NCBI GenBank assembly: GCA_030746455.1
Contig: JASLMQ010000438.1
Span: forward strand, 1 to 9,514
Source of the DNA: Candidatus Latescibacterota bacterium
Lineage (GTDB): Bacteria > Latescibacterota > UBA2968 > GCA-2709665
DNA: 9,514 nucleotides
Reading direction: 5' to 3'
Positions 51 to 9,514 of the stretch are shown here, piece by piece. The notes below the pieces were generated by a model. That model was not told where the DNA came from. It made no database searches and saw only the letters and a program-made list of their open reading frames with translations. The first letter of the stretch is position 1, and the number at the start of each line of letters is the position of its first letter. The translations under genes were made by a program, and so were the position numbers.

Positions 51-3000
51 TCAGAACCGGAAGAGTAGCCTCAAGCTGAAGGTCAGATCGGTGAGGTCGT
101 TCTGCGGGTAGACCCAATCGACGTATCTGCCCAGGTCCAGACGCAGGCGCAGGATCATCGAGTGAAGGGGATAGAGGTCCAGCGCAGTGCTCGATCCGAA
201 CTGATAGGTGGTCTCGTCGCTGGTGCCGCTTCCCCGTCGGTGGGCCGCGGAGAGGCTCTGTCGGGCCTCCAGGCGTCGAATCCGCAGGAAGCCCTGTCGC
301 CTCCAGATCAGGTCGGTCCGTGCCTCCCAGTCGTGAAGTCCCTCTCGCACGTCCCGATCATCCTCCTGAAGGCGACGATAGCGCAGGTACAGGGTGTTCT
401 GGAGCCCCGCGGTCCAGCGTCTCTCTATCCAGGCGGAAGGCTCGATGGTCCAGTCGGATCTCTGGCCGCTCCGGGCCCGATGAACCTGGCGGTACTGAAG
501 GCTGAGCCGGGTCCGGTATCCAAGCTTCATGTCCAGCTTCTCTGTCCAGCGCCAGTATCGGTTCACAAAGGCGCTCGCCGCCGCCAGCTCCTGCCGACTC
601 CTCTCGATCAGGCTGTGCAAGAACCATCGGGTGCCGGGACGCAGTTCGTTCCTGAGTGCGACGGTGCGTCCGACCTGGGCGTCCTGGAGTCTCCGGCGGT
701 CCAGGCTGAACAGGCGCCACACCCTGGAGCCCATTTCCTCGTCGGTGTTTCCCGATCCGGTGAGCGATTGGGTCAGATCGAGATCGAAATGGAATGGTGC
801 CAGCCGACTCCAGACCTGGCCCGGCGACATCCTGAGGTTGAGCTGGGCATACTGGAGCAGGCCCGCTTCCCTGGTGGCGGAGCCCGAATGGAAATACTGA
901 GACACCCGATTCTCCGCCCGGACGTTCAGCTGCATGGGGCGCCATTTCTCGTGCACGAGATCGACCAGCAATCGTTCCGACCGCAGGAGGGGGCGCCGCC
1001 GTCCACCTGTCGGTGCGTCGTCCAGGTCGCTCTGGCGGTAGATCAGCGTGCCCTGGACCTGCTCGCGGATCGTCGTGTTCAGCCGCAAGTGGCCCAGGTG
1101 AAACGCCTGGCGGCCGGAGGTCTTGGATCCGGACCGTCTTCCCACACGCAGCAGGGCTTCGGCCTTCAGCCGCCGGAGGGAGAGTTTGCGGCACCACGAT
1201 TTGGGCAGCTGGTAGACGAATCGGGTCTGAAGCAGCGTCTTTCGCGAGGTGCCGCTTCCCCCTCGGGTCTCCGTGTTCTGGAGGTCCAGACGCAGGCTCG
1301 GGAAGCGCGCCCTGTGGAAGAGGAGGCCGAGACCGGCGGCTCGGTCCGTAGGGGTGACCCCGTGGGACGCGGCCGATCCCCGCGACCTCTGCCATTCTCC
1401 GGTGAAGCGCAGATCGTCACGCAGATCAAGGGAAGAGGAGAGCCCTGCCGCAGACCGCACGTCCCCCACCACCCGTTGGGGGCGATAAAGGTTCTGGTAG
1501 TCCTGTGTGTAGCTCCTATGGTACGACCGGACCCGGAGCCGGGGCGAGCTCAGCCACGCCTCGACATCGCTCCCCGCCAGGGAGCCCGTCCTGGGGTTGT
1601 AGGCCAGGCCGGGCGTGATCCGCAGGTCAAAGGCCCCAAGGGTCTCGCGGAACTCGCCGTGGAGAGAGAGGAGGTCCCGCACCCCCTCTGTACCGGGATG
1701 CGCCGAGTCCTCGGCCGTGAACTGAAGCCAGTCGCCCTGGACAGTGAAGCGGTCCGACGGACTCCAGCTCATGGTGGCCGCCCGAACCCGCTCGGCGTCC
1801 TCGCCGGCATAGTATTCGTACTCGATCTCGATCCGGGTGTCCGTGCTTACGGCCTCCTCCCGCACGAAAACGAGGGTGCCGTTCGTGTAGTCCAGGACAT
1901 AGTCCCTGCCGCTGGCAGCCGCCAGGCCATCTAGCCTCAGCACCTCGCTGCCCCGGACGAGATGTCGCTGCTTCAGCTGGATCAGCGACCGCTCGGTCTG
2001 GTAGCGAGCCACCAATCTGTAGTGCGAGCGCGGATGGGCCGGATCGTAGACCGAGTCGGGGAAGGGAGAGGCCCCGGGGAGGATAAGAAGACCGTTCGAG
2101 AAGTCGACCCACTCCGGATCGGCGCGTCCATCTCCGTCGTCGTCGATTCCGAAGCGGGCGATCGGCACCGACGTGTCCGACGTGTCGGTGATGGCCAGAT
2201 CGAAGGTGAAGGGGATGATGCCGGCGCCACCCAGATGGTAGATGTTCCGCCGGGCCGTAGAGACTATCCCGCCGTGCTGCAGGACCGACTCGCCGGGTCC
2301 CTCCTTTGAGGTGTATGCAGCGACCAGGGTCCAGCCCGACATAACCGGCCTGTAGAACCGGATGACGTTCGCCTTCGAGTAGAACTGGAAGTCCTCGCCC
2401 TCTCTCCACAGGTCGTAATCCCCGGTGACCCCGGCGACAGTGTGACGGGCCAGCGTTCGGGCCGTGTTGTTTCCAGCGACGAGATCGTCCACGTAGATCC
2501 GGATGCCTTCCGGTGGGTCGTGCGCGGAGATCAGGTCGGGGATGGCATAGAACTCGTTGCGCGAATAATCCAGGTCCCTCAACACGACCGACGATGTATC
2601 TGCGGCACCCTCGTAGAACTCGTAGGTCTTGCGAGAGCGCAACTCGCCCGCCATGGCCTTCAGGCCGAACCGGCTTCGTTTGAACCGCGGGGTCTTCGGC
2701 CCGGCCTGAAGCCACACATTTCCTCCGAAGATGCTGGCCGGCTCCCCGAATGGGACCTCGCCCTGCTCCCGACGGAAATCCCCCCACCCCAGCTCCCGCA
2801 CCACCTCGTCTCCACGGGCCTTGTACTGGACTCCGTACATCGTTTCGCTGTAGTCCGCGTTGTTGTAGAAGCCCGACAGGCTTCTCTCCTCCCCGAACGT
2901 CAGCCGGTTCTTCACGTCCAGCCGCTCTCCCCAGATCCTGTGAGGATCGCCTCCCCCGGAAGGCGTGAAGAACTGCCTGTGCTCGTGGATCACCGCTGCC

Positions 3001-4244
3001 CGGCTTCCCTGCCAACTCCACGTTGCGTTGCCCAAAGGGATACTGCCACCCGCCTCGTTGTCGAACAGGTCTCGAGCGATCTGCCCCCAGGACCTTTCTC
3101 TGCCGCCCTTCCTGGACACGGTTGCATAGCTGACCCACGGGTCCTGTTGTGACCGTCTGTGGTCTATGTGCTCCGGGTTCAGCAGGATCGCCAGGCCGCC
3201 GTTCACGTACACGGACTCGTAGCTGGAGGCGGTCAGGCCAGAGGCGTAGTCCAGGATCTCCCAGTTCCTCTCGGATCGGTCCCATGCCAGGACGCTATGG
3301 TCCGTGAGTACCCACACGCTCCGGGGGTCGACCGTCCCATCCGCCAGCCGTGATGTCCTGAGGTAGGCGTTCCCCTCGAACTCCCGCCAGACCTCGGTGC
3401 CCGCCTCGTAGACGTACAGGCCCAGCCGGGTGATCGCCCAGATGCGATCCTCTTCGACCACCACTTCCAGGAGGCTGTCTCGGCGGAGATAGGGCTGGAG
3501 GTGGGGGTGTCGACTCAGAAGCTCGGGGTCGAACCGAACGAGTCCGGCCTCGCCGGCAAGCCACACCTCATCACCCAGAAGGAACATCCGATCCGGGATC
3601 GGTGCCCCTTCCGCACCGATGGCGTGGTGTCGCCACCTCTCATACTGGGGATCGTACTCCGAGAGACCCCGATCGGTGAGCATCCAGATCCGGCCGTCCC
3701 GCACCACGATATCGCTCGCCGGTCGTCCCGAGAGGCCGTGTGCGTCTCCGAACGCCTCCCACTCCTCGATCAGCAGGTCGTAGCGTGCCACACCGCTGTC
3801 GGTCGCAATCCAGACCGTGTCGTCCTGCAGGGCCAGCCCGTTGACGGCATTGGAGGGAAGCCCGCTGGTCACGTCGAAGAAGAGCCACTCGTTCAGCCGG
3901 ATGTGCAGCGCTGCCAGCCCGTGGTCCAGGATGCACCAGAGCCATTCGTCGCCGTAGTGGAGCTGCCTGACGGCAGGAGCGACTCCGTTTCTAGAGGGGG
4001 ATGCGCGTTTGAAGGAGTCATCGTCCGGATTGTACCGGTAGAGCCCGTGGGGGGTGCCGACCCAGACTTGATTCTCCGCTTCGATGACGGGGTACCGACG
4101 GTGAAGGTTGATCTCCGCGGAGCGCGGTTCACCCGGCCAGGCGAGGATGAGGAGTGCGGCAAGCACACTCCAGTGAACTGCAGGAAGGTAGGAGCGGAAG
4201 ACCGTGTGGTGGGAGGCGCAGACGACGCGTGTGGAACGGCGCAT
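51..4244 (-). CDS. Large outer-membrane protein: N-terminal beta-propeller, SprA-like modules, C-terminal beta-barrel
   Basis: The protein has 1397 residues from the ATG at 4244; an upstream in-frame ATG at 4334 would add 30. I prefer 4244 because a basic stretch and a hydrophobic core (SVLAALLILAW, about residues 26-36) follow it as a signal peptide; neither ATG has a good Shine-Dalgarno. Residues 60-322 hold seven 'VWxxTxxGLxxYD' blades, starting near 60, 102, 144, 186, 227, 268 and 310, a regular 41-42 residue period typical of two-component-regulator propellers. Two modules (about 581-646 and 765-812, the latter with DYVLDYTNGTLVFV and IEIEYEYY) resemble those of SprA-like proteins. An Asp-rich loop, DDDGDGRADPE, lies at 700-710. 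From about 820 onward, alternating hydrophobic and charged strands end in LRLLFRF, a C-terminal aromatic as in BAM-inserted barrels. It is the last gene of the operon. Outer-membrane location is well supported; transport, secretion or display function is unknown. Confidence 0.85.
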   Translation of the reverse strand: MRRSTRVVCASHHTVFRSYLPAVHWSVLAALLILAWPGEPRSAEINLHRRYPVIEAENQVWVGTPHGLYRYNPDDDSFKRASPSRNGVAPAVRQLHYGDEWLWCILDHGLAALHIRLNEWLFFDVTSGLPSNAVNGLALQDDTVWIATDSGVARYDLLIEEWEAFGDAHGLSGRPASDIVVRDGRIWMLTDRGLSEYDPQYERWRHHAIGAEGAPIPDRMFLLGDEVWLAGEAGLVRFDPELLSRHPHLQPYLRRDSLLEVVVEEDRIWAITRLGLYVYEAGTEVWREFEGNAYLRTSRLADGTVDPRSVWVLTDHSVLAWDRSERNWEILDYASGLTASSYESVYVNGGLAILLNPEHIDHRRSQQDPWVSYATVSRKGGRERSWGQIARDLFDNEAGGSIPLGNATWSWQGSRAAVIHEHRQFFTPSGGGDPHRIWGERLDVKNRLTFGEERSLSGFYNNADYSETMYGVQYKARGDEVVRELGWGDFRREQGEVPFGEPASIFGGNVWLQAGPKTPRFKRSRFGLKAMAGELRSRKTYEFYEGAADTSSVVLRDLDYSRNEFYAIPDLISAHDPPEGIRIYVDDLVAGNNTARTLARHTVAGVTGDYDLWREGEDFQFYSKANVIRFYRPVMSGWTLVAAYTSKEGPGESVLQHGGIVSTARRNIYHLGGAGIIPFTFDLAITDTSDTSVPIARFGIDDDGDGRADPEWVDFSNGLLILPGASPFPDSVYDPAHPRSHYRLVARYQTERSLIQLKQRHLVRGSEVLRLDGLAAASGRDYVLDYTNGTLVFVREEAVSTDTRIEIEYEYYAGEDAERVRAATMSWSPSDRFTVQGDWLQFTAEDSAHPGTEGVRDLLSLHGEFRETLGAFDLRITPGLAYNPRTGSLAGSDVEAWLSSPRLRVRSYHRSYTQDYQNLYRPQRVVGDVRSAAGLSSSLDLRDDLRFTGEWQRSRGSAASHGVTPTDRAAGLGLLFHRARFPSLRLDLQNTETRGGSGTSRKTLLQTRFVYQLPKSWCRKLSLRRLKAEALLRVGRRSGSKTSGRQAFHLGHLRLNTTIREQVQGTLIYRQSDLDDAPTGGRRRPLLRSERLLVDLVHEKWRPMQLNVRAENRVSQYFHSGSATREAGLLQYAQLNLRMSPGQVWSRLAPFHFDLDLTQSLTGSGNTDEEMGSRVWRLFSLDRRRLQDAQVGRTVALRNELRPGTRWFLHSLIERSRQELAAASAFVNRYWRWTEKLDMKLGYRTRLSLQYRQVHRARSGQRSDWTIEPSAWIERRWTAGLQNTLYLRYRRLQEDDRDVREGLHDWEARTDLIWRRQGFLRIRRLEARQSLSAAHRRGSGTSDETTYQFGSSTALDLYPLHSMILRLRLDLGRYVDWVYPQNDLTDLTFSLRLLFRF

Positions 4245-4370
4245 GCATCGGCTTTCGCTTGGACTCAGGCCTGATTCCTCAGTAGGGATCCCCCGGGAGG
4301 CCGACTCGGGGTCAGACCCGCCTCTGTGCGTCATTGCGCCACAATGTCCGGCTGAAAGCGAATTCGACCG

Positions 4371-4401: not shown

Positions 4402-5307
4402 TCAGGCCTCTACTTTCTCAACGCGTATCTTCCGGGTGTCGATCTCTCCGACGCCGTTCTTGTGGGAGGCCTTGAGGTGCTCGATCTGTTCGGGGGGGAG
4501 GCGCCTTCCGCCGAATCCGTAGCGGGACGCGACCACGGCATCGAGTGCGAGGATGTCTAGGCCGGCGAAAAGGCGGTTCTCGCGAACGACGGTACCGGGC
4601 CCTGTCGGCCCTCCACTGAGCAGCACCCGACTCGCGTCGACGATGTTGAGCGATGGCCGTACGGCCGTGGCCAGATCCGCTATGGCCTGAGAGAGATCCA
4701 GGCGCGTGTGGAAGGTCGTGCGGTCCCAGATGACACCCATCAGATTCTTGATGGCGAGACTCACGCGCGTGGCCGAATGGTGCTTGGCCGTCGCCAGATT
4801 GATGAAGAGGTCCGCACGGCGAACCACTTTCAGAAGCTCGATCTGCTTCAGGACCCGACCGTCCACGTCCAGGGGTTCGTAGAGCCGCTGCTGATTCGCC
4901 AGCAGTAGCCTTGCGTTCGGGTACTCTGCCACGACGGCGTTGAGCTCGATCTTGTCGAATCGGTTGGATTTGAGCGTGTGGTCCGCGATCACGATCCGTT
5001 TTGCGCCCTTTGAGGCCAGGAAGCTGCACAGGGCATCCACCGCCTGTGGCGAGGTCGTGGTGCCCGACGCCTCGGCGTGGGGCAGGCAGAGATTCGGCTT
5101 GATGAGGACGGTGGCGCGCGACAGGTCCTTCTCCACGAGGCTATCTACCCCGCCCACGGCGGCAAACAGCGCAGCCATCGCATCAGCCGTACGCCCCTCG
5201 ACCTCGAAAACCGACGGCTCTATCGGGGCCCCGTGTACGCGGCCGATCGACAGCAGGTTCGAGGCGAGGGCGCCGGTCCCGATCCTGAGGAAGTCTCTCC
5301 GGTTCAT
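4402..5307 (-). CDS. DUF362 family protein with Tat-type signal peptide (short paralogue)
   Basis: This 301-residue protein opens with NRRDFLRIG (residues 2-10), a twin-arginine motif, followed by a hydrophobic stretch to about residue 27, so it is probably exported folded or membrane-anchored. The remainder matches DUF362: VLIKPNLCLPH (67-77), TSPQAVDAL (85-93), AKHHSATRVSLAIKNLMG (174-191), LNIVDA (220-225) and SGGPTGPGT (231-239). The family is sometimes fused to ferredoxin domains, but no 4Fe-4S cluster motif is visible here, and its biochemical role is not known to me. The ATG overlaps the stop of the lipoprotein gene in ATGA, and AAGG lies four bases upstream, indicating translational coupling. 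It is a shorter paralogue of the DUF362 gene at 5868-7100 and lacks that protein's dockerin-like tail. Family assignment is fairly secure; function is not assigned. Confidence 0.88.
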   Translation of the reverse strand: MNRRDFLRIGTGALASNLLSIGRVHGAPIEPSVFEVEGRTADAMAALFAAVGGVDSLVEKDLSRATVLIKPNLCLPHAEASGTTTSPQAVDALCSFLASKGAKRIVIADHTLKSNRFDKIELNAVVAEYPNARLLLANQQRLYEPLDVDGRVLKQIELLKVVRRADLFINLATAKHHSATRVSLAIKNLMGVIWDRTTFHTRLDLSQAIADLATAVRPSLNIVDASRVLLSGGPTGPGTVVRENRLFAGLDILALDAVVASRYGFGGRRLPPEQIEHLKASHKNGVGEIDTRKIRVEKVEA

Positions 5308-5849
5308 CGCGCCTTCCCATCCACATTCAGAGCGAATTGCTTCAGTATGTTCAGGCTCTCCTCGGTGTCGTCGTTGATCTCAAGATGGACGAAATAGGCA
5401 CCCCGATAGAACGCGAGCACCTGCGAGAACCCGCCGTAACGGACGTACTGGGCGGCGGTTCCGGCCCCGGCGGTCCAGCCGGTCGCCGCACTCATTCCGA
5501 GATCAGGATCGCCGTAGGTGGCCTGGGCGTTGGTTTCGTTCCCCAGATCGTACACGGTCAACCCGAGCTGGTGATCCGCGTTGCCCACCGAACCCCGGTA
5601 GGTCTGGTGCGCTGCCTCCCGGAATCCGTGTCGCTGGTAGATGTCGGCCAAGCCGTTGATGTAGATGGTGAGGTCGGAGATGCTGTTGGCGGTCCACCCG
5701 GTTCCGGAATACGCCCACCCGGTGATCTCGTTGTTCTTCACCAGGAGATCCTCGATCGACAGGATGTCATCGCTGTTCGTCGCCTGCTTACTGCACGCCG
5801 GCGCGAAGATACACAAGCAGATCGGGATCAACCAGGCGGCCACTCTCAT
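5304..5849 (-). CDS. Small lipoprotein, DUF6599-like
   Basis: This 181-residue protein starts with a short basic end, a hydrophobic core (WLIPICLCIFA) and APAC-S, a slightly atypical lipobox with Ala rather than Leu at -3; Cys19 would be the lipidated residue. The mature part contains EITGWAYSGTG (41-51), DLTIYINGLADIYQRHGFREA (59-79), LTVYDLGNETNAQATYG (97-113) and VLAFYRGAYFVHLEI (144-158). This pattern of an 'INGxADxYxxxGF' block, a 'YDxGxxxNAxxxY' block and a late 'F(W/Y)(K/R)GxYxVxL' strand resembles DUF6599, recalled from memory rather than searched. A strong GGGGA lies six bases before the ATG. It begins 18 bases after the larger DUF362 gene and overlaps the start of the smaller one by four bases, so it is probably made together with both. 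It may be a partner or anchor for them; no enzymatic motif is visible. Confidence 0.85.
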   Translation of the reverse strand: MRVAAWLIPICLCIFAPACSKQATNSDDILSIEDLLVKNNEITGWAYSGTGWTANSISDLTIYINGLADIYQRHGFREAAHQTYRGSVGNADHQLGLTVYDLGNETNAQATYGDPDLGMSAATGWTAGAGTAAQYVRYGGFSQVLAFYRGAYFVHLEINDDTEESLNILKQFALNVDGKAR

Positions 5850-5867
5850 TTCGCTTCCCCAGGCAGC

Positions 5868-7100
5868 CTATACCACGCTCTTGCCGAAGAGCTGGGCGAA
5901 CTGCACGAAGTCGTTGAAGCCGACAGACCCGTTTCCGTCCAGGTCGAATTTCGAGTTGAACCCCGCGTCTCCCTCCGATGTGCCGAAGCCCCGGGCGAAC
6001 TCTACAAAGTCGCTGAAGTCCACCTTCCCACTCCCATCGAAGTCCGCCAGCCTCACGCGTGCGGGGTCGACGTCGATTTCCACGGGAGGACTGCTCTGCG
6101 ACGTCGGGTTCGTGAGCCTGACGACATCCATCTGGGAGGGATCATTGGTTCCCAGACGATAAACGCTCGCGGCCGTGTCGATGTGGCTCGCATACGAGGT
6201 GGTGGTGCAACCATTGTCTTCCAGGATTTCCCGGCCCCAGTAGTCGGTGGCCACCATATCCTTGCTAAGGACGATCGTGTTGGCCGTGAACTGGGGATAT
6301 CCATTGGGACCGCCCGACCTCACACCCACCAGGGCGTCGAGGACGTTCACGCGCTGTCTGCTCTTGATGGGGTAGAGGGAACTCAGCGCAGGGATGTAGG
6401 GATCGCCATTGTTGCCGTGGAGCCTGCTCGGCCTGTCGCAGGTGCCGTAGTGGTTCTTGAGGCTCAGGCTGACCCCCGCGACCCCACCGTGGTTCTTGAG
6501 TACGGGGATATTGATGATGTGATCCGCCATCGATGTGACGACTTTGCTGAGCCTCTGGGAGCTTCCGCTCACGTCGTACGAGTCGGTCGAGTAGCCGGCG
6601 GTGTCGCTGCCAATGCACCTCACCCCGGAGGTCGATGAATTGATGGTGTACCCGCTCGACTGCATCCTGCTCGACCTGTCGCCGTAGATGATGATGTTGT
6701 TCTGAGGGAACATCTGTCCGTCGAAGGCCATGCGGGTGAGCCCGTTGATCACGGCCTGGGCCACCTGGGGGTGGGTGGGGATGGAGGGGAAGAGGCAGTT
6801 GACCTTGATGGCCACCGTCTGCGAGGGGGAGATGCTCGGCAACAGCGCCTTCCAGGCCTCGCCCACATCCTGCCTGTCCGCCAGCCACTTGACGCCACTG
6901 TCCACCATCATCTGCACGGTAGGTAGCTTGATTGAGAACCCGGTGGTGGCGTCGTCGTGCTCGGCAATGACCACGCGGCTGGCATCCGAGGAGGGGGACA
7001 GGGACAGCAAAGCCCTCGGGTAGGCGAGGGTCGCAATCCCGGCAACGGAGGTCGTGCGAAGAAAGGCGCGACGATCGACTCGCAGCTGTCTATCGTGCAT
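5868..7100 (-). CDS. Tat-exported DUF362 protein with C-terminal dockerin-like calcium-binding tail
   Basis: The protein has 410 residues. DRRAFLRTT (9-17) is a clear twin-arginine motif followed by a hydrophobic signal region to about residue 35. The DUF362 core spans about 41-330, with VAIKVNCLFPS (96-106), NIPVLKNHGGVAGVSLSLKN (197-216), NVLDALVGVRSGGPNG (252-267) and a late KDMVATDYWG (280-289) block. Two EF-hand-like loops follow: DFDGSGKVDFSD (353-364) and DLDGNGSVGFND (386-397), each leading into a short F-rich helix (FVEFARGFG, FVQFAQLFG). This is the layout of a type I dockerin-like domain, common on exported proteins of FCB-type bacteria. The gene starts 23 bases after the histidine kinase gene, with AGGA seven bases before the ATG, so it is the first structural gene of the operon. 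The enzymatic role is unknown; the tail suggests attachment to a partner or calcium-dependent stability. Confidence 0.9.
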   Translation of the reverse strand: MHDRQLRVDRRAFLRTTSVAGIATLAYPRALLSLSPSSDASRVVIAEHDDATTGFSIKLPTVQMMVDSGVKWLADRQDVGEAWKALLPSISPSQTVAIKVNCLFPSIPTHPQVAQAVINGLTRMAFDGQMFPQNNIIIYGDRSSRMQSSGYTINSSTSGVRCIGSDTAGYSTDSYDVSGSSQRLSKVVTSMADHIINIPVLKNHGGVAGVSLSLKNHYGTCDRPSRLHGNNGDPYIPALSSLYPIKSRQRVNVLDALVGVRSGGPNGYPQFTANTIVLSKDMVATDYWGREILEDNGCTTTSYASHIDTAASVYRLGTNDPSQMDVVRLTNPTSQSSPPVEIDVDPARVRLADFDGSGKVDFSDFVEFARGFGTSEGDAGFNSKFDLDGNGSVGFNDFVQFAQLFGKSVV

Positions 7101-7123: not shown

Positions 7124-8485
7124 TCAGGCGTCACCCTTCGTCCGTTGCGTCGGTTCTGCGGGGAACGCCAGTGTGAACCGCGCGCCTCCCCGGGGGCTCT
7201 CGGAGACCTCCGCAGAGCCCGCCTGGAGTCCCATGATGCGCTGGACGATGGCGAGGCCCAGGCCCGCTCCTCCCACGCTGGAGGTGCGGCTTTCGTCGAG
7301 GCGGGAGAAGGGCTCGAAGACCTTGTCGCGAACGTCCGGGGGGATCCCGGGGCCGTCGTCGTCGATACAGATGAAGACGGACCCATCCTCCTGTCGGCCT
7401 TCTAACCAGATATCGGTCTTCGCGTGGCGCACCGCATTGGTGACGAGGTTCAGTACGGCCCGCCGGAAGTAGCGGGGAATGGCGCGTACGTACACCGTGC
7501 TGCAATCGACGTGGACGGCCAGGTCGTCACGCAGCTCGGAGACGATCCCGGGCATCTCGCGGAGGACGGCGCCGACGTCCACCCTGTCCATCTCGGGGGC
7601 GGCATCGTCGCCTTCCAGGCGGACGAATGTGAGGAGCTCCTCAACGAGGTCATTCAGCTCGGTGAGAGAACCCTGGATCCGGAGGAGATGGCGTGTCTTC
7701 TCCTCTGGTGAGTCCGTGGACTGGGCCTCGTCGAGCACGAAGAACAACCTGGCCAGCGGCGTGCGGAACTCGTGGGAGACGGCGCGCAGGAGCTCCTTCT
7801 GGCCTTCCAGGAGCCCTTCGATTCTGTCGGCCATCGCGTTGAAGGTGCTCGCGAGCTCCGCGACGGCATCCGCGCTGTCCACCTCGGCCCTGCTTTCGAG
7901 ATCCCCCTGGCCGAAGCGCTCCGCGACCTCCGAGAGCCTGTGAATCCGGCGCTCGAGCGGCCGCACGAGGAAGTAGATGGCTGCGCCGATCAGCAGGAGG
8001 ATCGAAGCCAGGATGCCCAGGAATATGTACTCTGTGCCCCGCAGGGGACCCGGTCTAGGCCTGCCCCTCCCGGGCCTGCCGTCTGGAGCCGGTCCCCGGG
8101 GTCTCCGCCTGACCCCCATTGCCAAGACCTCCGCTTCAGAGATCTTGGCGTAGGCCTGCGGTCCCGTGTCCGTGAAAGCCGCGACGGCTTCACCGGACTG
8201 CATCTGCTGAACCATCTCCGGAGAAAGCGCTAGCTCACCAAAGGGCTTGACGGTGAGGGACCACCATCGTCCGTGGCGGGCGAGGATCTCCGCGCGCCGG
8301 GTCGAGTCCTCCCCGGCCTCCGCGAGGTGCTGGCTGATGGCGGTCGCACTGCCACGCATCCTCTCGAGGAATCTGGTACGGCGGAGCGCCTCAAGCCGCT
8401 GGTTGACGATGAAGATCGTGGCGATGGCCCCCAGGAAAAGGACGATGGCCATCCCGATGTAGATGCGGAGAAATTGCTGTCTCAC
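7124..8485 (-). CDS. Membrane sensor histidine kinase, RstB/CpxA-like
   Basis: This 453-residue kinase would phosphorylate the response regulator encoded just upstream. Transmembrane helix 1 is at about 9-29, a periplasmic segment at 30-151 and helix 2 at 152-173, followed by HAMP (174-228), HisKA with SHEFRTPLARL (phospho-acceptor His238) and HATPase_c. ATP-binding motifs are the N box LNLVTNAVRHA (345-355), DDDGPGIP (375-382) and GGAGLGLAIV (405-414). All catalytic residues look intact. The start is GTG, overlapping the regulator's stop as GTGA, with GAGG seven bases upstream, so the two are translationally coupled. The QFLRIYIG start and PLARL after the histidine box are like RstB and CpxA. 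The periplasmic segment just before helix 2 (about 126-150) is rich in Arg, Pro and Gly, which is unusual for the outer face of a membrane helix. The signal sensed is unknown. Confidence 0.95.
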   Translation of the reverse strand: MRQQFLRIYIGMAIVLFLGAIATIFIVNQRLEALRRTRFLERMRGSATAISQHLAEAGEDSTRRAEILARHGRWWSLTVKPFGELALSPEMVQQMQSGEAVAAFTDTGPQAYAKISEAEVLAMGVRRRPRGPAPDGRPGRGRPRPGPLRGTEYIFLGILASILLLIGAAIYFLVRPLERRIHRLSEVAERFGQGDLESRAEVDSADAVAELASTFNAMADRIEGLLEGQKELLRAVSHEFRTPLARLFFVLDEAQSTDSPEEKTRHLLRIQGSLTELNDLVEELLTFVRLEGDDAAPEMDRVDVGAVLREMPGIVSELRDDLAVHVDCSTVYVRAIPRYFRRAVLNLVTNAVRHAKTDIWLEGRQEDGSVFICIDDDGPGIPPDVRDKVFEPFSRLDESRTSSVGGAGLGLAIVQRIMGLQAGSAEVSESPRGGARFTLAFPAEPTQRTKGDA

Positions 8486-9195
8486 GGTCCTTCCTCTGCC
8501 ATGAGGTAACCCACGCCGCGCACGGTTTTGATGTAGTGGGGAGCGGAGGTGTCGTCGCCGAGCTTTCGCCGGATCCGGGACACGTAGACGTCCACGCTCC
8601 GGTCCAGGCCGTCGTAGTCGTAGTTGAAGAGGGCCTGGTAGATGTCCTGGCGGCTCACGACCTCACCGGCCCGGCCCGCCAGGTACCACAGCAGCTCGAA
8701 CTCGATGGTGGTGAGATCGATTCCGGTCTCACCCAGGACGACCTCTCTCCGTCCCGCGTCCACGGCAAGCTGACCCACGGCTACGCGACCCGCCGTTGAC
8801 TTCGGAGCGGCCGGCTGGACCCTCCGGAGCAGGGCCCGGATTCTGGCGATGAGCACACGGGGCTGCACCGGCTTGGTGACGAAGTCGTCGGCGCCGAGCT
8901 CGAGTCCCAGGATCTCGTCCAGGTCCTCGTCGCGGGCGGTCAGGATCAGGATGGGCCCACCATATGCCGGTCGAACGGCCTTGCAGACCTGGAAGCCGTC
9001 CATTCCAGGCAGCATGAGGTCGAGGATCACGAGATCCGGCGACTCCGAGAGGATCCGTTCCGCCGCCGTTTCGCCGTTCGGCTCGCAGGCGACCTGGAAC
9101 CCCTCCCGCTCGAGGCGCTCCTTGATGAGCTCCGCCAGCTCGATGTCGTCCTCGACGATAAGGATCGTCTCGCTGTTTGCCTGAGGTGATTCCAT
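8482..9195 (-). CDS. OmpR/PhoB-family response regulator, RstA-like
   Basis: This 237-residue DNA-binding regulator is the first gene of the operon. The receiver domain spans about 9-125, with acidic pair Asp16/Asp17, phospho-acceptor Asp59 in LVILDLMLPGMDG, Thr86 and Lys108 in FVTKP. A winged-helix domain follows at about 136-234, with LTTIEFELLWYL, the recognition-helix region DRSVDVYVSRIRRKL (198-212) and the wing motif IKTVRGVGY. ILTARDEDLDEILGLELGAD is typical of the RstA-like branch. The ATG is preceded by TGAGG with a seven-base spacing, set in the loop of a small hairpin. The kinase gene overlaps its end by four bases. TTACA repeats upstream of the start suggest autoregulation. The likely targets include this operon; other targets cannot be seen from the window. 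Confidence 0.95.
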   Translation of the reverse strand: MESPQANSETILIVEDDIELAELIKERLEREGFQVACEPNGETAAERILSESPDLVILDLMLPGMDGFQVCKAVRPAYGGPILILTARDEDLDEILGLELGADDFVTKPVQPRVLIARIRALLRRVQPAAPKSTAGRVAVGQLAVDAGRREVVLGETGIDLTTIEFELLWYLAGRAGEVVSRQDIYQALFNYDYDGLDRSVDVYVSRIRRKLGDDTSAPHYIKTVRGVGYLMAEEGP

Positions 9196-9211
9196 GCTCT
9201 AGCCTCAGAGC
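9196..9211 (-). promoter_or_regulatory. Ribosome-binding site within a small hairpin loop
   Basis: The minus strand reads GCTCTGAGGCTAGAGC directly before the response regulator ATG: a perfect 5-base stem (GCTCT/AGAGC) with the Shine-Dalgarno GAGG in its 6-base loop. The spacing from GAGG to ATG is seven bases, which supports this start. The loop is complementary over five bases (GAGGC/GCCTC) to the CCTCC region at 9254-9260 upstream in the leader. Confidence 0.5.
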
Positions 9212-9224
9212 GATACAAAGCAAC

Positions 9225-9254
9225 CACAGATGAGCACAGATAAACACTGATAAG
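9225..9254. repeat. Three-copy 10-base tandem repeat (CACAGATRAR type)
   Basis: Three consecutive units begin at 9225, 9235 and 9245 on the plus strand, each close to CACAGATRAR; the third has T for A at its fourth base and R is G or A. The stretch is AT-rich against a GC-rich background. Similar CACAGATG/AACACAGATG strings are, as I recall, scattered through intergenic regions of many environmental bacteria and often give spurious short proteins. Its role is unknown. Confidence 0.75.
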
Positions 9255-9258
9255 GAGG

Positions 9259-9289
9259 CGTCAGAGCCTGGCGATTGCAGGCCTTGACG
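9259..9289 (-). other. Leader hairpin (imperfect inverted repeat, 12-base arms)
   Basis: Arms at 9259-9270 and 9278-9289 enclose a 7-base loop. Ten of twelve pairs are Watson-Crick, with one wobble and one mismatch. The hairpin lies in the predicted leader of the operon. On the minus strand it is followed by CCTCC and not by a T tract, so it does not look like a simple intrinsic terminator. Confidence 0.5.
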
Positions 9290-9313
9290 GGCCTTGTTGT
9301 TGAAGTATCGCCC

Positions 9314-9322
9314 ATTATCGCA
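9314..9322 (-). promoter_or_regulatory. Extended -10 promoter element of the operon
   Basis: The minus strand reads TGCGATAAT, matching the extended -10 form TGnTATAAT at all but one position. No TTGACA-like -35 lies 16-18 bases upstream; that position falls within the TTACA array instead. Transcription would start near 9307, leaving a leader of about 110 bases before the response regulator ATG at 9195. The promoter call assumes housekeeping-type sigma recognition in this lineage. Confidence 0.55.
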
Positions 9323-9330
9323 AGGATGTC

Positions 9331-9368
9331 TGTAAGGGCTTTGTAAATGGAATGTAACAGTTTGTAAA
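9331..9368 (-). promoter_or_regulatory. Array of four TTACA direct repeats: probable response-regulator operator
   Basis: On the plus strand TGTAA occurs at 9331, 9342, 9353 and 9363, that is TTACA on the minus strand at spacings of 10, 11 and 11 bases in an AT-rich stretch. Two of the copies are extended to TTTACA and one to GTTACA. Direct repeats one helical turn apart, with AT-rich gaps, are how OmpR/PhoB-family dimers bind DNA, and GTTACA resembles the second half of the RstA box reported for Escherichia coli. The promoter-proximal unit ends 11 bases before the -10 element, the geometry of PhoB-activated promoters that lack a good -35. Autoregulation by the adjacent regulator is inferred. 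Confidence 0.7.
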
Positions 9369-9400
9369 CAGGCGATTCCAAGACTACGGCCACAATGGGC

Positions 9401-9514
9401 CTACGATTCCCAGGAACCCATCGCGATTGTGGGTATGCAGAACCGGTCGCCCTCGCTGATTTCATAGATCCTGAAGGCCTCGCCCTCCTTCAGCATCAGG
9501 TCCGGATTGTCGAT
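9401..9514 (-). CDS. C-terminal end of an unidentified gene (partial, runs off the right edge)
   Basis: Reading the minus strand from the window edge gives 37 in-frame codons ending in TAG at 9403-9401. The visible residues include DNPDLMLKEGEAF, IYEISEGDRF and the terminus TIAMGSWES. The frame is open to the edge, GC-rich and of the same codon style as the downstream genes, while the base composition turns AT-rich just after its stop; this supports a genuine gene end. I do not recognise the family from so short a piece. It lies 205 bases upstream of the response regulator on the same strand; since a separate promoter seems to sit in the gap, it is probably not part of the same primary transcript. 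Confidence 0.6.
   Translation of the reverse strand: MDNPDLMLKEGEAFRIYEISEGDRFCIPTIAMGSWES

What the first reader, a model, noticed from the sequence alone, without database searches (positions are those of the whole stretch)
9314..9368. Helically phased TTACA array abutting an extended -10: a self-controlled promoter for a two-component operon
Four TTACA units with 10, 11 and 11 base spacing sit upstream of a -10 element that lacks a -35, and the next gene encodes an OmpR/PhoB-type regulator. Repeat spacing and distance to the -10 both fit class II activation as at PhoB boxes. Four units could seat two regulator dimers. Because repeats and regulator are adjacent, the recognition motif of this regulator can be proposed from the sequence alone and used to look for its regulon.
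Basis: partly seen in the sequence, partly recalled or inferred. Interest (0 to 1): 0.7.

Follow-up and report, generated by a model that had tools for sequence, protein, structure and literature searches.

The report
Four-repeat RstA-type self-controlled promoter
Four evenly spaced copies of TTACA in front of a bacterial two-component regulator gene look like a real, conserved binding array of a known type (like the E. coli RstA box), and the promoter they serve lies ten bases further on than first proposed.

Summary
In detail: four exact TTACA units, spacing 10-11-11, are the only TTACA in the window; in 20,000 shuffles of the intergenic stretch none gave even three in phase. The adjacent regulator and kinase are RstA/RstB-like (best NCBIfam models, but below cut-off). 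Related genomes carry the same box: two patterns hit 12 of 16 genomes with a 64-71% regulator orthologue and 2 of 48 without; wrong spacing hit 0 of 16. A profile built without the window matches the window's array at E = 2.4e-11, next best E = 1. In 11 of 12 aligned boxes a -10-like hexamer stands exactly 21 nt after unit 4; the twelfth is an eight-unit array that fits at its last unit. Genes behind boxes in relatives include the regulator operon, small secreted Spy-like proteins and an ABC exporter. E. coli asr shows the same register weakly. Against: one orthologue genome has no box, and nine further regulator loci have none nearby. Binding is untested.

The parts
9363..9367 (-). unit 1, TTACA
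   Evidence: exact TTACA in 7 of 9 aligned relatives
9353..9357 (-). unit 2, TTACA; units 1+2 = TACA-N6-TACA, the RstA-box spacing
   Evidence: exact in 8 of 9 relatives
9342..9346 (-). unit 3, TTACA; weakest unit in relatives
   Evidence: exact in 2 of 9, ACA kept in 6 of 9 relatives
9331..9335 (-). unit 4, TTACA, followed by GAC
   Evidence: exact in 3 of 9, ACA kept in 8 of 9 relatives; GAC follows in 8 of 15 boxes that were found without it in the pattern
9327..9332 (-). -35-like hexamer CAGACA, overlapping unit 4
   Evidence: nnGAC in 8 of 9 aligned relatives, nnGAT in one; reading it as -35 is inference from the 17-nt spacer
9304..9309 (-). -10 hexamer GATACT, 21 nt after unit 4
   Evidence: xAxxxT at this offset in 11 of 12 boxes, window included; 0 of 5000 shuffles of the 11 relatives
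   Evidence: inference from the -10 position
9314..9319 (-).
   Evidence: offset 11: mean score 2.58, xAxxxT in 1 of 12
8482..9195 (-). RstA-like response regulator, 237 aa
7124..8485 (-). RstB-like sensor histidine kinase, 453 aa, overlapping the regulator's end by 4 bases
9401..9514 (-). 3' end of the gene upstream of the array (...IAMGSWES*), same direction

Best explanation
The four TTACA units are the operator of the RstA-like regulator encoded next to them, built into its own sigma-70 promoter. Units 1+2 (10 apart) form one RstA-type site for a head-to-tail dimer; units 3+4 (11 apart) seat a second dimer whose downstream edge overlaps a weak -35 (CAGACA, 9332-9327). The -10 is GATACT (9309-9304), 17 nt after that -35 and 21 nt after unit 4; transcription would start near 9297 and run through regulator and kinase. 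Phosphorylated regulator most likely activates, making up for the poor -35, and so amplifies its own synthesis. The same promoter form stands before envelope-type genes elsewhere in relatives' genomes. Shown here: the array, its conservation with fixed spacing and fixed -10 distance, its link to genomes with the orthologous regulator, RstA-like contact residues. Inferred: binding, dimer seating, activation rather than repression, start site.
For: Array exact and phased beyond chance. Profile R1 from 9 relatives' promoters without the window: window 36.8 bits, E = 2.4e-11, next 3.1 bits, E = 1. Since those 9 were found by the TTACA spacing, a match in the units is expected; but the positions outside the units alone score 21.3 bits in the window, and 0 of 20,000 shuffles of those letters reach that. 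-10 offset of 21 nt: 11 of 12 boxes, 0 of 5000 shuffles; the twelfth is an eight-unit array with the same 21 nt after its last unit. Boxes in 12 of 16 orthologue genomes against 2 of 48 others, 22 hits against 2; reversed-pattern control 2 hits in the 16 and 6 in the 48 (Fisher p = 4e-8, genomes not independent). Wrong-spacing control: 0 of 16, 1 of 48. GAC after unit 4 in 8 of 15 boxes found without it. Box upstream of the regulator operon in G003, G035 (ahead of an ECF sigma gene), G041 and, decayed, G058. The base-contacting residues of Klebsiella RstA (PMC4117788, section 16 read; numbered there Arg199/200, Ser201, Val203/204, Arg207/208) correspond, by my mapping, to the R, S, V, R of DRSVDVYVSRIR, all identical. 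Outside the phylum: L008 (regulator 51% identical) has ATACA-10-TTACA-11-GTACA-11-TTACA, 21 nt, TATAAT.
Against: No binding or transcript data. G033 has a 68% regulator orthologue but no box. G034 has no box directly upstream of its regulator. 0 of 9 examined clade B loci have one near the regulator, though the contact residues are the same in the three clade B regulators aligned. The profile does not reach the boxes before the regulators of G041 and G058. Of the 15 orthologue-genome hits, the 5 in clade B were left out: 1 of those 5 has xAxxxT at 21 nt and none has GAC, while 3 of the 5 hits in other genomes have xAxxxT there, so that mark alone is not specific. Part of the 12 of 16 is circular, as GAC was read off some of the same genomes. 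The window's own genome is not held. GATACT matches TATAAT in only 4 of 6.
Confidence: 0.83

Rival explanations
1. One reading: class II promoter whose -10 is the extended GATAAT at 9319-9314, 11 nt after unit 4, with no -35.
For: TGC-GATAAT is present and matches TATAAT in 5 of 6, better than GATACT; a distance of about 10 nt from box to -10 is known for PhoB (recalled).
Against: At offset 11 xAxxxT stands in 1 of 12 boxes, the window itself (mean score 2.58); at offset 21 in 11 of 12, and in L008.
Confidence: 0.1
2. The box belongs to another OmpR-family regulator of the cell (WalR-like, PhoP-like or CpxR-like), and the adjacent pair is merely one of its targets.
For: Similar direct repeats are recalled for WalR (TGTWAH repeats, opposite orientation) and Bacillus PhoP (four TTNACA-like repeats); the R..V..R of the recognition helix is shared, e.g. 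with VicR.
Against: Boxes track genomes with this regulator's orthologue (12 of 16 against 2 of 48), although 20 of the other 48 hold a 41-46% homologue at E <= 1e-50; TACA has the orientation of the RstA box relative to the gene; boxes adjoin the regulator operon in several genomes.
Confidence: 0.1
3. The box works as a repressor site: the bound regulator covers the -35 and shuts its own operon down (negative feedback).
For: Unit 4 overlaps the -35-like hexamer.
Against: The -35 is poor (nnGAC) in 8 of 9 aligned relatives and the 17-nt spacing is kept, which fits activation better; at E. coli asr RstBA induces from the same distal position (PMC9026648, passage seen; register).
Confidence: 0.12
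4. Chance, slippage or a repeat with no regulatory role.
For: One of 300 whole-window shuffles has some 5-mer four times in phase.
Against: Spacers between units are unrelated in sequence; spacing and -10 offset are kept across genomes; profile match E = 2.4e-11, with 21.3 bits from outside the units.
Confidence: 0.01

Closest known systems
RstA box of enterobacterial RstA/RstB (consensus TACATNTNGTTACA; E. coli asr promoter)
   Same: TACA repeats 10 apart (units 1+2: TACAAACTGTTACA, 10 of 12 specified positions by eye); same contact residues; RstA and RstB are the best NCBIfam models. The profile's best hit in an 18-kb stretch of E. coli K-12 is the asr RstA box, E = 0.028, and TATAGT lies 57 nt after the start of unit 1 (58 in the window); PMC9026648 puts that box at -77 to -55 (passage).
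   Different: The described RstA box has two units; here four, the second pair overlapping the -35, where asr has a PhoB box (-39 to -22). The stretch upstream of E. coli rstA gave only 2.1 bits. Candidate targets differ.
Bacillus subtilis PhoP promoters (recalled; two searches found no paper with the terms tried)
   Same: Four TTNACA-like direct repeats about 11 apart, two dimers, in the core promoter.
   Different: Another branch of the regulator family and another phylum; recalled only, not tested.
Pho box of PhoB (recalled)
   Same: Direct repeats about 11 apart replacing the -35.
   Different: Unit is CTGTCAT, not TTACA; the PhoB model scores lower than RstA for this regulator (183.6 against 236.5 bits).
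Cpx/Bae envelope-stress regulons with CpxP and Spy (recalled)
   Same: Small secreted proteins, barrel-like and export genes behind boxes in relatives.
   Different: Pfam matches to LTXXQ and Metal_resist are below their cut-offs where present and absent in G035; the signal is unknown.

Membership tests
OmpR/PhoB-type response regulators | Receiver plus winged-helix DNA-binding domain | tested here: met
   PF00072 92.7 bits and PF00486 97.6 bits, both above cut-off
RstA (NCBIfam NF007977) | Score above the curated equivalog cut-off | tested here: not met
   236.5 bits, cut-off 330; still the best of 97 families
RstB (NCBIfam NF007898) | Score above the curated equivalog cut-off | tested here: not met
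   239 bits, cut-off 478; still the best of 81 families
RstA-type DNA recognition | Base-contacting residues Arg199/200, Ser201, Val203/204, Arg207/208 of the recognition helix | tested here: met
   all four identical in the window regulator; residues from the paper section read, alignment, numbers mapped by me
RstA box | Tandem TACA repeats in the order TACATNTNGTTACA | tested here: met
   TACAAACTGTTACA: both TACA and the GTTACA kept, 2 of 12 specified positions differ (sequence; consensus)
RstA box | Binding by the phosphorylated regulator | not testable with these tools
   needs a footprint
sigma-70 promoter | -10 and -35 hexamers about 17 nt apart | tested here: inconclusive
   -10-like hexamer at a fixed offset in 11 of 12 boxes and nnGAC 17 nt upstream, but both hexamers are weak and the consensus scan found no site
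Autoregulated two-component operon | Box conserved upstream of the regulator operon in relatives | tested here: inconclusive
   4 of 6 clade A relatives (two of them ahead of a sigma gene, one decayed and seen by eye only), 0 of 9 examined clade B loci

The most novel reading that the evidence does not exclude
A fixed promoter plan for RstA-class regulators, four half-sites at 10-(10 or 11)-11 with the -10 set 21 nt after the last, reaches across phyla (Latescibacterota, a Crenotrichaceae genome, a decayed form at E. coli asr) and is old; the regulator can spread cooperatively along longer arrays, as the eight-unit array of G034 suggests; and it governs an envelope-stress regulon with Spy-like secreted proteins in a phylum with hardly any studied regulators.
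Probability: 0.35. Interest if true: 0.55.

Novelty: new member of a known kind. Interest (0 to 1): 0.45.

Why it matters
It gives, from sequence alone, a testable operator, promoter and set of candidate targets for a two-component system of a little-studied phylum, and ties it to a structurally known regulator (RstA), so that binding and start-site predictions are exact to the base. It also corrects the promoter: the hexamer chosen by eye was the better consensus match, but comparison with relatives points to another. The doubled RstA site with a fixed -10 distance could be used to look for RstA-class regulons in other phyla.

Tried and rejected
No genome is held for the window, so its own regulon could not be scanned; relatives were used. 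PhoB box: rejected as the closest type (unit sequence). Chance: rejected. RNA element in the leader: no Rfam match at the gathering score, fold no better than shuffles (z = -0.75). The G040 C17 hit lies beside, and points away from, a gene that I take by eye for mraZ; read as MraZ boxes (recalled). The other four non-orthologue hits (G017, G027, G045, G046) lack GAC and were read as chance, though the G045 and G046 ones, kin of each other, do have xAxxxT at 21 nt. The G014 hit has no xAxxxT there. A twelve-hit search with box and -10 together gave 10 hits in 6 of the 16 and 2 in 2 of the 48 (G040, G042), reversed control 2 in the 48; the G042 hit (3 mismatches) was not followed. Clade B hits: 6 of 10 have xAxxxT (CAATGT or CATTCT) at 21 nt, but they are near-copies in kin genomes and were not used for the promoter claim; their gene contexts were not read, those of the clade B hits were (receptor-like and other envelope-type genes, by eye). 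Seven clade B profile hits covering model positions 23-25 to 65: I looked at three (L229, L230, L231); they lie antisense in or at the same conserved small gene, and I dropped all seven as sites. Papers: I saw passages and section 16 of PMC4117788, passages of PMC9026648 and one passage of PMC4888885, a primer of no use; all others only as listings. Searches for Bacillus PhoP with TTAACA and for Spy/CpxP/LTXXQ listed no paper; the one listing for Latescibacter with response regulator and binding motif was not opened. The profile search outside the phylum used 63 of the 80 loci.

Full report
Observation. The minus strand of the window holds TTACA at 9363-9367, 9353-9357, 9342-9346 and 9331-9335 (spacing 10, 11, 11), and nowhere else on either strand. 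Shuffling the 209-base stretch 9196-9404 20,000 times gave at most two phased TTACA. The next gene, 8482-9195 minus, is an OmpR/PhoB-type regulator and is followed, with a 4-base overlap, by a sensor kinase at 7124-8485.

Which regulator. The best NCBIfam models are RstA (236.5 bits, cut-off 330) and RstB (239 bits, cut-off 478), so the pair is RstA/RstB-like rather than a tested member. Identity is 45% over 233 alignment columns to E. coli RstA and 31% over 289 to RstB. The base-contacting residues of Klebsiella RstA (PMC4117788, section 16 read) are identical here by my mapping, and they are kept in 12 of 13 aligned regulators; in P0003 the Ser is Arg.

Relatives. Of the seven best loci of a scan with the regulator, six bear titles of Latescibacterota or Latescibacteria and one of Gemmatimonadota. 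Of 64 genomes held for the phylum of one of them (G003), 16 have a regulator at 64-71% identity. I call G003, G033, G034, G035, G041 and G058 clade A and the other ten clade B; this is a working label from identity and gene context, not from a tree.

The box recurs. A three-unit pattern gave 9 hits in 8 of the 16 orthologue genomes and 3 hits in 2 of the 48 others; reversed control 0 and 2. Stretches around regulators and arrays then showed TTACA-N5-TTACA-N6-nnACA-N6-nnACA in G003, G034, G035 and G041. A pattern for it (16 fixed letters, 1 mismatch) gave 20 hits: 15 in 9 of the 16 and 5 in 5 of the 48; reversed control 1 and 10. In 8 of the 15, and in the window, GAC follows unit 4, although it was not part of the pattern (p = 2e-11 at 1/64 each). 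With GAC added (2 mismatches) the 10-11-11 and 10-10-11 patterns gave 22 hits in 12 of the 16 and 2 hits in 2 of the 48; reversed control 2 and 6. The same letters at wrong spacing gave 0 of 16 and 1 of 48. These counts are partly circular, because GAC was read off some of the same genomes, and the genomes are kin.

The promoter. I lined up 12 boxes at unit 4: the window, the 10 clade A hits and one 10-10-11 box of G003; the 5 clade B hits were left out. A hexamer xAxxxT stands exactly 21 nt after unit 4 in 11 of 12 (mean weighted score 5.5, next best offset 3.25; 0 of 5000 letter shuffles of the 11 relatives reach their value). The exception, G034 at 6156, is an array of eight units at 0, 10, 21, 32, 43, 54, 65 and 75, the fifth to seventh degenerate, whose last unit CTACA is followed by GAC and, after 21 nt, GATATT. 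Of the clade B hits left out, 1 of 5 has xAxxxT there; of the 10 clade B hits, 6 have it. The regulator promoters of G041 and G058 keep the register by eye, with GATCTT and GATATT, though their unit 4 has decayed. The window's hexamer is GATACT at 9309-9304. GAC after unit 4 falls where the last bases of a -35 (TTGACA) would be at a 17-nt spacer; I infer a weak -35, CAGACA, overlapped by unit 4.

Profile tests. A sequence-only profile from nine relatives' promoters, without the window, finds the window's array with 36.8 bits, E = 2.4e-11; the next best is 3.1 bits. As the nine had been found by the TTACA spacing, I scored the positions outside the units alone: 21.3 bits in the window, reached by 0 of 20,000 shuffles of those letters. 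Over the 64 genomes nothing outside the 16 exceeded 17.7 bits; the nine training sites scored 38.7-46.1 (stricter filters, at most 80 candidates scored per genome). The profile does not reach the boxes before the regulators of G041 and G058. Among 63 of the 80 loci the one hit above 8 bits is in L008, a Crenotrichaceae genome with a 51% identical regulator: ATACA-10-TTACA-11-GTACA-11-TTACA, 21 nt, TATAAT, before a gene whose product begins like a secreted protein. In an 18-kb stretch of E. coli K-12 the best hit, E = 0.028, is the RstA box of asr, with degenerate units 3-4 and TATAGT in register; a paper places that box at -77 to -55 and a PhoB box at -39 to -22 (PMC9026648, passage). The stretch before E. 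coli rstA gave 2.1 bits.

Genes behind boxes in relatives. Regulator-kinase in G041 and, decayed, G058; ECF sigma-regulator-kinase in G003 and G035 (sigma domains PF04542 and PF08281 tested in G035). Small secreted proteins in five genomes: one family in G003, G034 and G035 (36-49% identical) and another pair in G041 and G058 (33%), not linked to each other at E 1e-3; Pfam gives sub-threshold LTXXQ for that of G034 and Metal_resist for that of G058, none for G035, while those of G003 and G041 were not scanned. I call them Spy-like on that slender ground. In G003, G034 and G035 a barrel-like gene follows (41-51% identical to one another); in G041 an ABC ATPase and permease follow, whose G058 homologues (62% and 54%) have their own box, divergent from the small secreted gene. 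A Temptin_C/Ig protein follows one G034 box and a protein without Pfam match the other. Two boxes could not be assigned: G058 C125 (contig end) and G041 C94 (nearest gene in the other direction). An envelope-stress role is inference.

Counter-evidence. G033 has the regulator and no box; G034 has no box directly before the regulator; 0 of 9 examined clade B loci have one near the regulator, whose gene there has another upstream neighbour; G008 was not examined because its contig starts within the gene. Self-control is thus likely for the window but not a fixed trait of the family.

Mechanism. Most likely two dimers sit head to tail, one on units 1-2 at about -70 to -56, where asr has its RstA box, one on units 3-4 at about -49 to -34, overlapping the -35, and the proximal dimer contacts sigma. 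Positions follow from the -10; binding, stoichiometry and direction of control are untested.

Verdict. It is a new member of a known kind, with unusually exact comparative support.

Noticed in passing
window 9205-9256 (-): The leader between promoter and regulator start holds a copy of a dispersed ATCTGTG repeat; a related 22-base pattern (1 mismatch) occurs in 12 of 64 relatives' genomes, up to 44 times in one. The ORF starting MFICAHLWL at 9247 translates it and is probably not a gene.
   Followed up: partly
L128 6156-6235: Eight-unit TTACA-like array with 10-11 spacing before a gene in G034, ending in the same promoter register.
   Followed up: partly
L123 8619-10119, L124 1594-3044: In G035 and G003 an ECF sigma factor gene lies between the box and the regulator gene.
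   Followed up: partly
window 4402-7100 (-): Two DUF362 proteins, one with EF-hand-like repeats, flank a DUF6599 protein gene downstream of the kinase.
   Followed up: no
window 51-4334 (-): A 1427-aa protein with a sub-threshold two-component-propeller match and a sub-threshold SprA match, possibly a propeller plus outer-membrane barrel.
   Followed up: no
L127 about 9084-9168 (-): In G041 the -10 lies 6 bases before the regulator's ATG, so its transcript would be leaderless.
   Followed up: no
L138 8248-8284: A TTACA array beside what I take for mraZ in G040, pointing away from it; probably MraZ boxes (recalled).
   Followed up: partly
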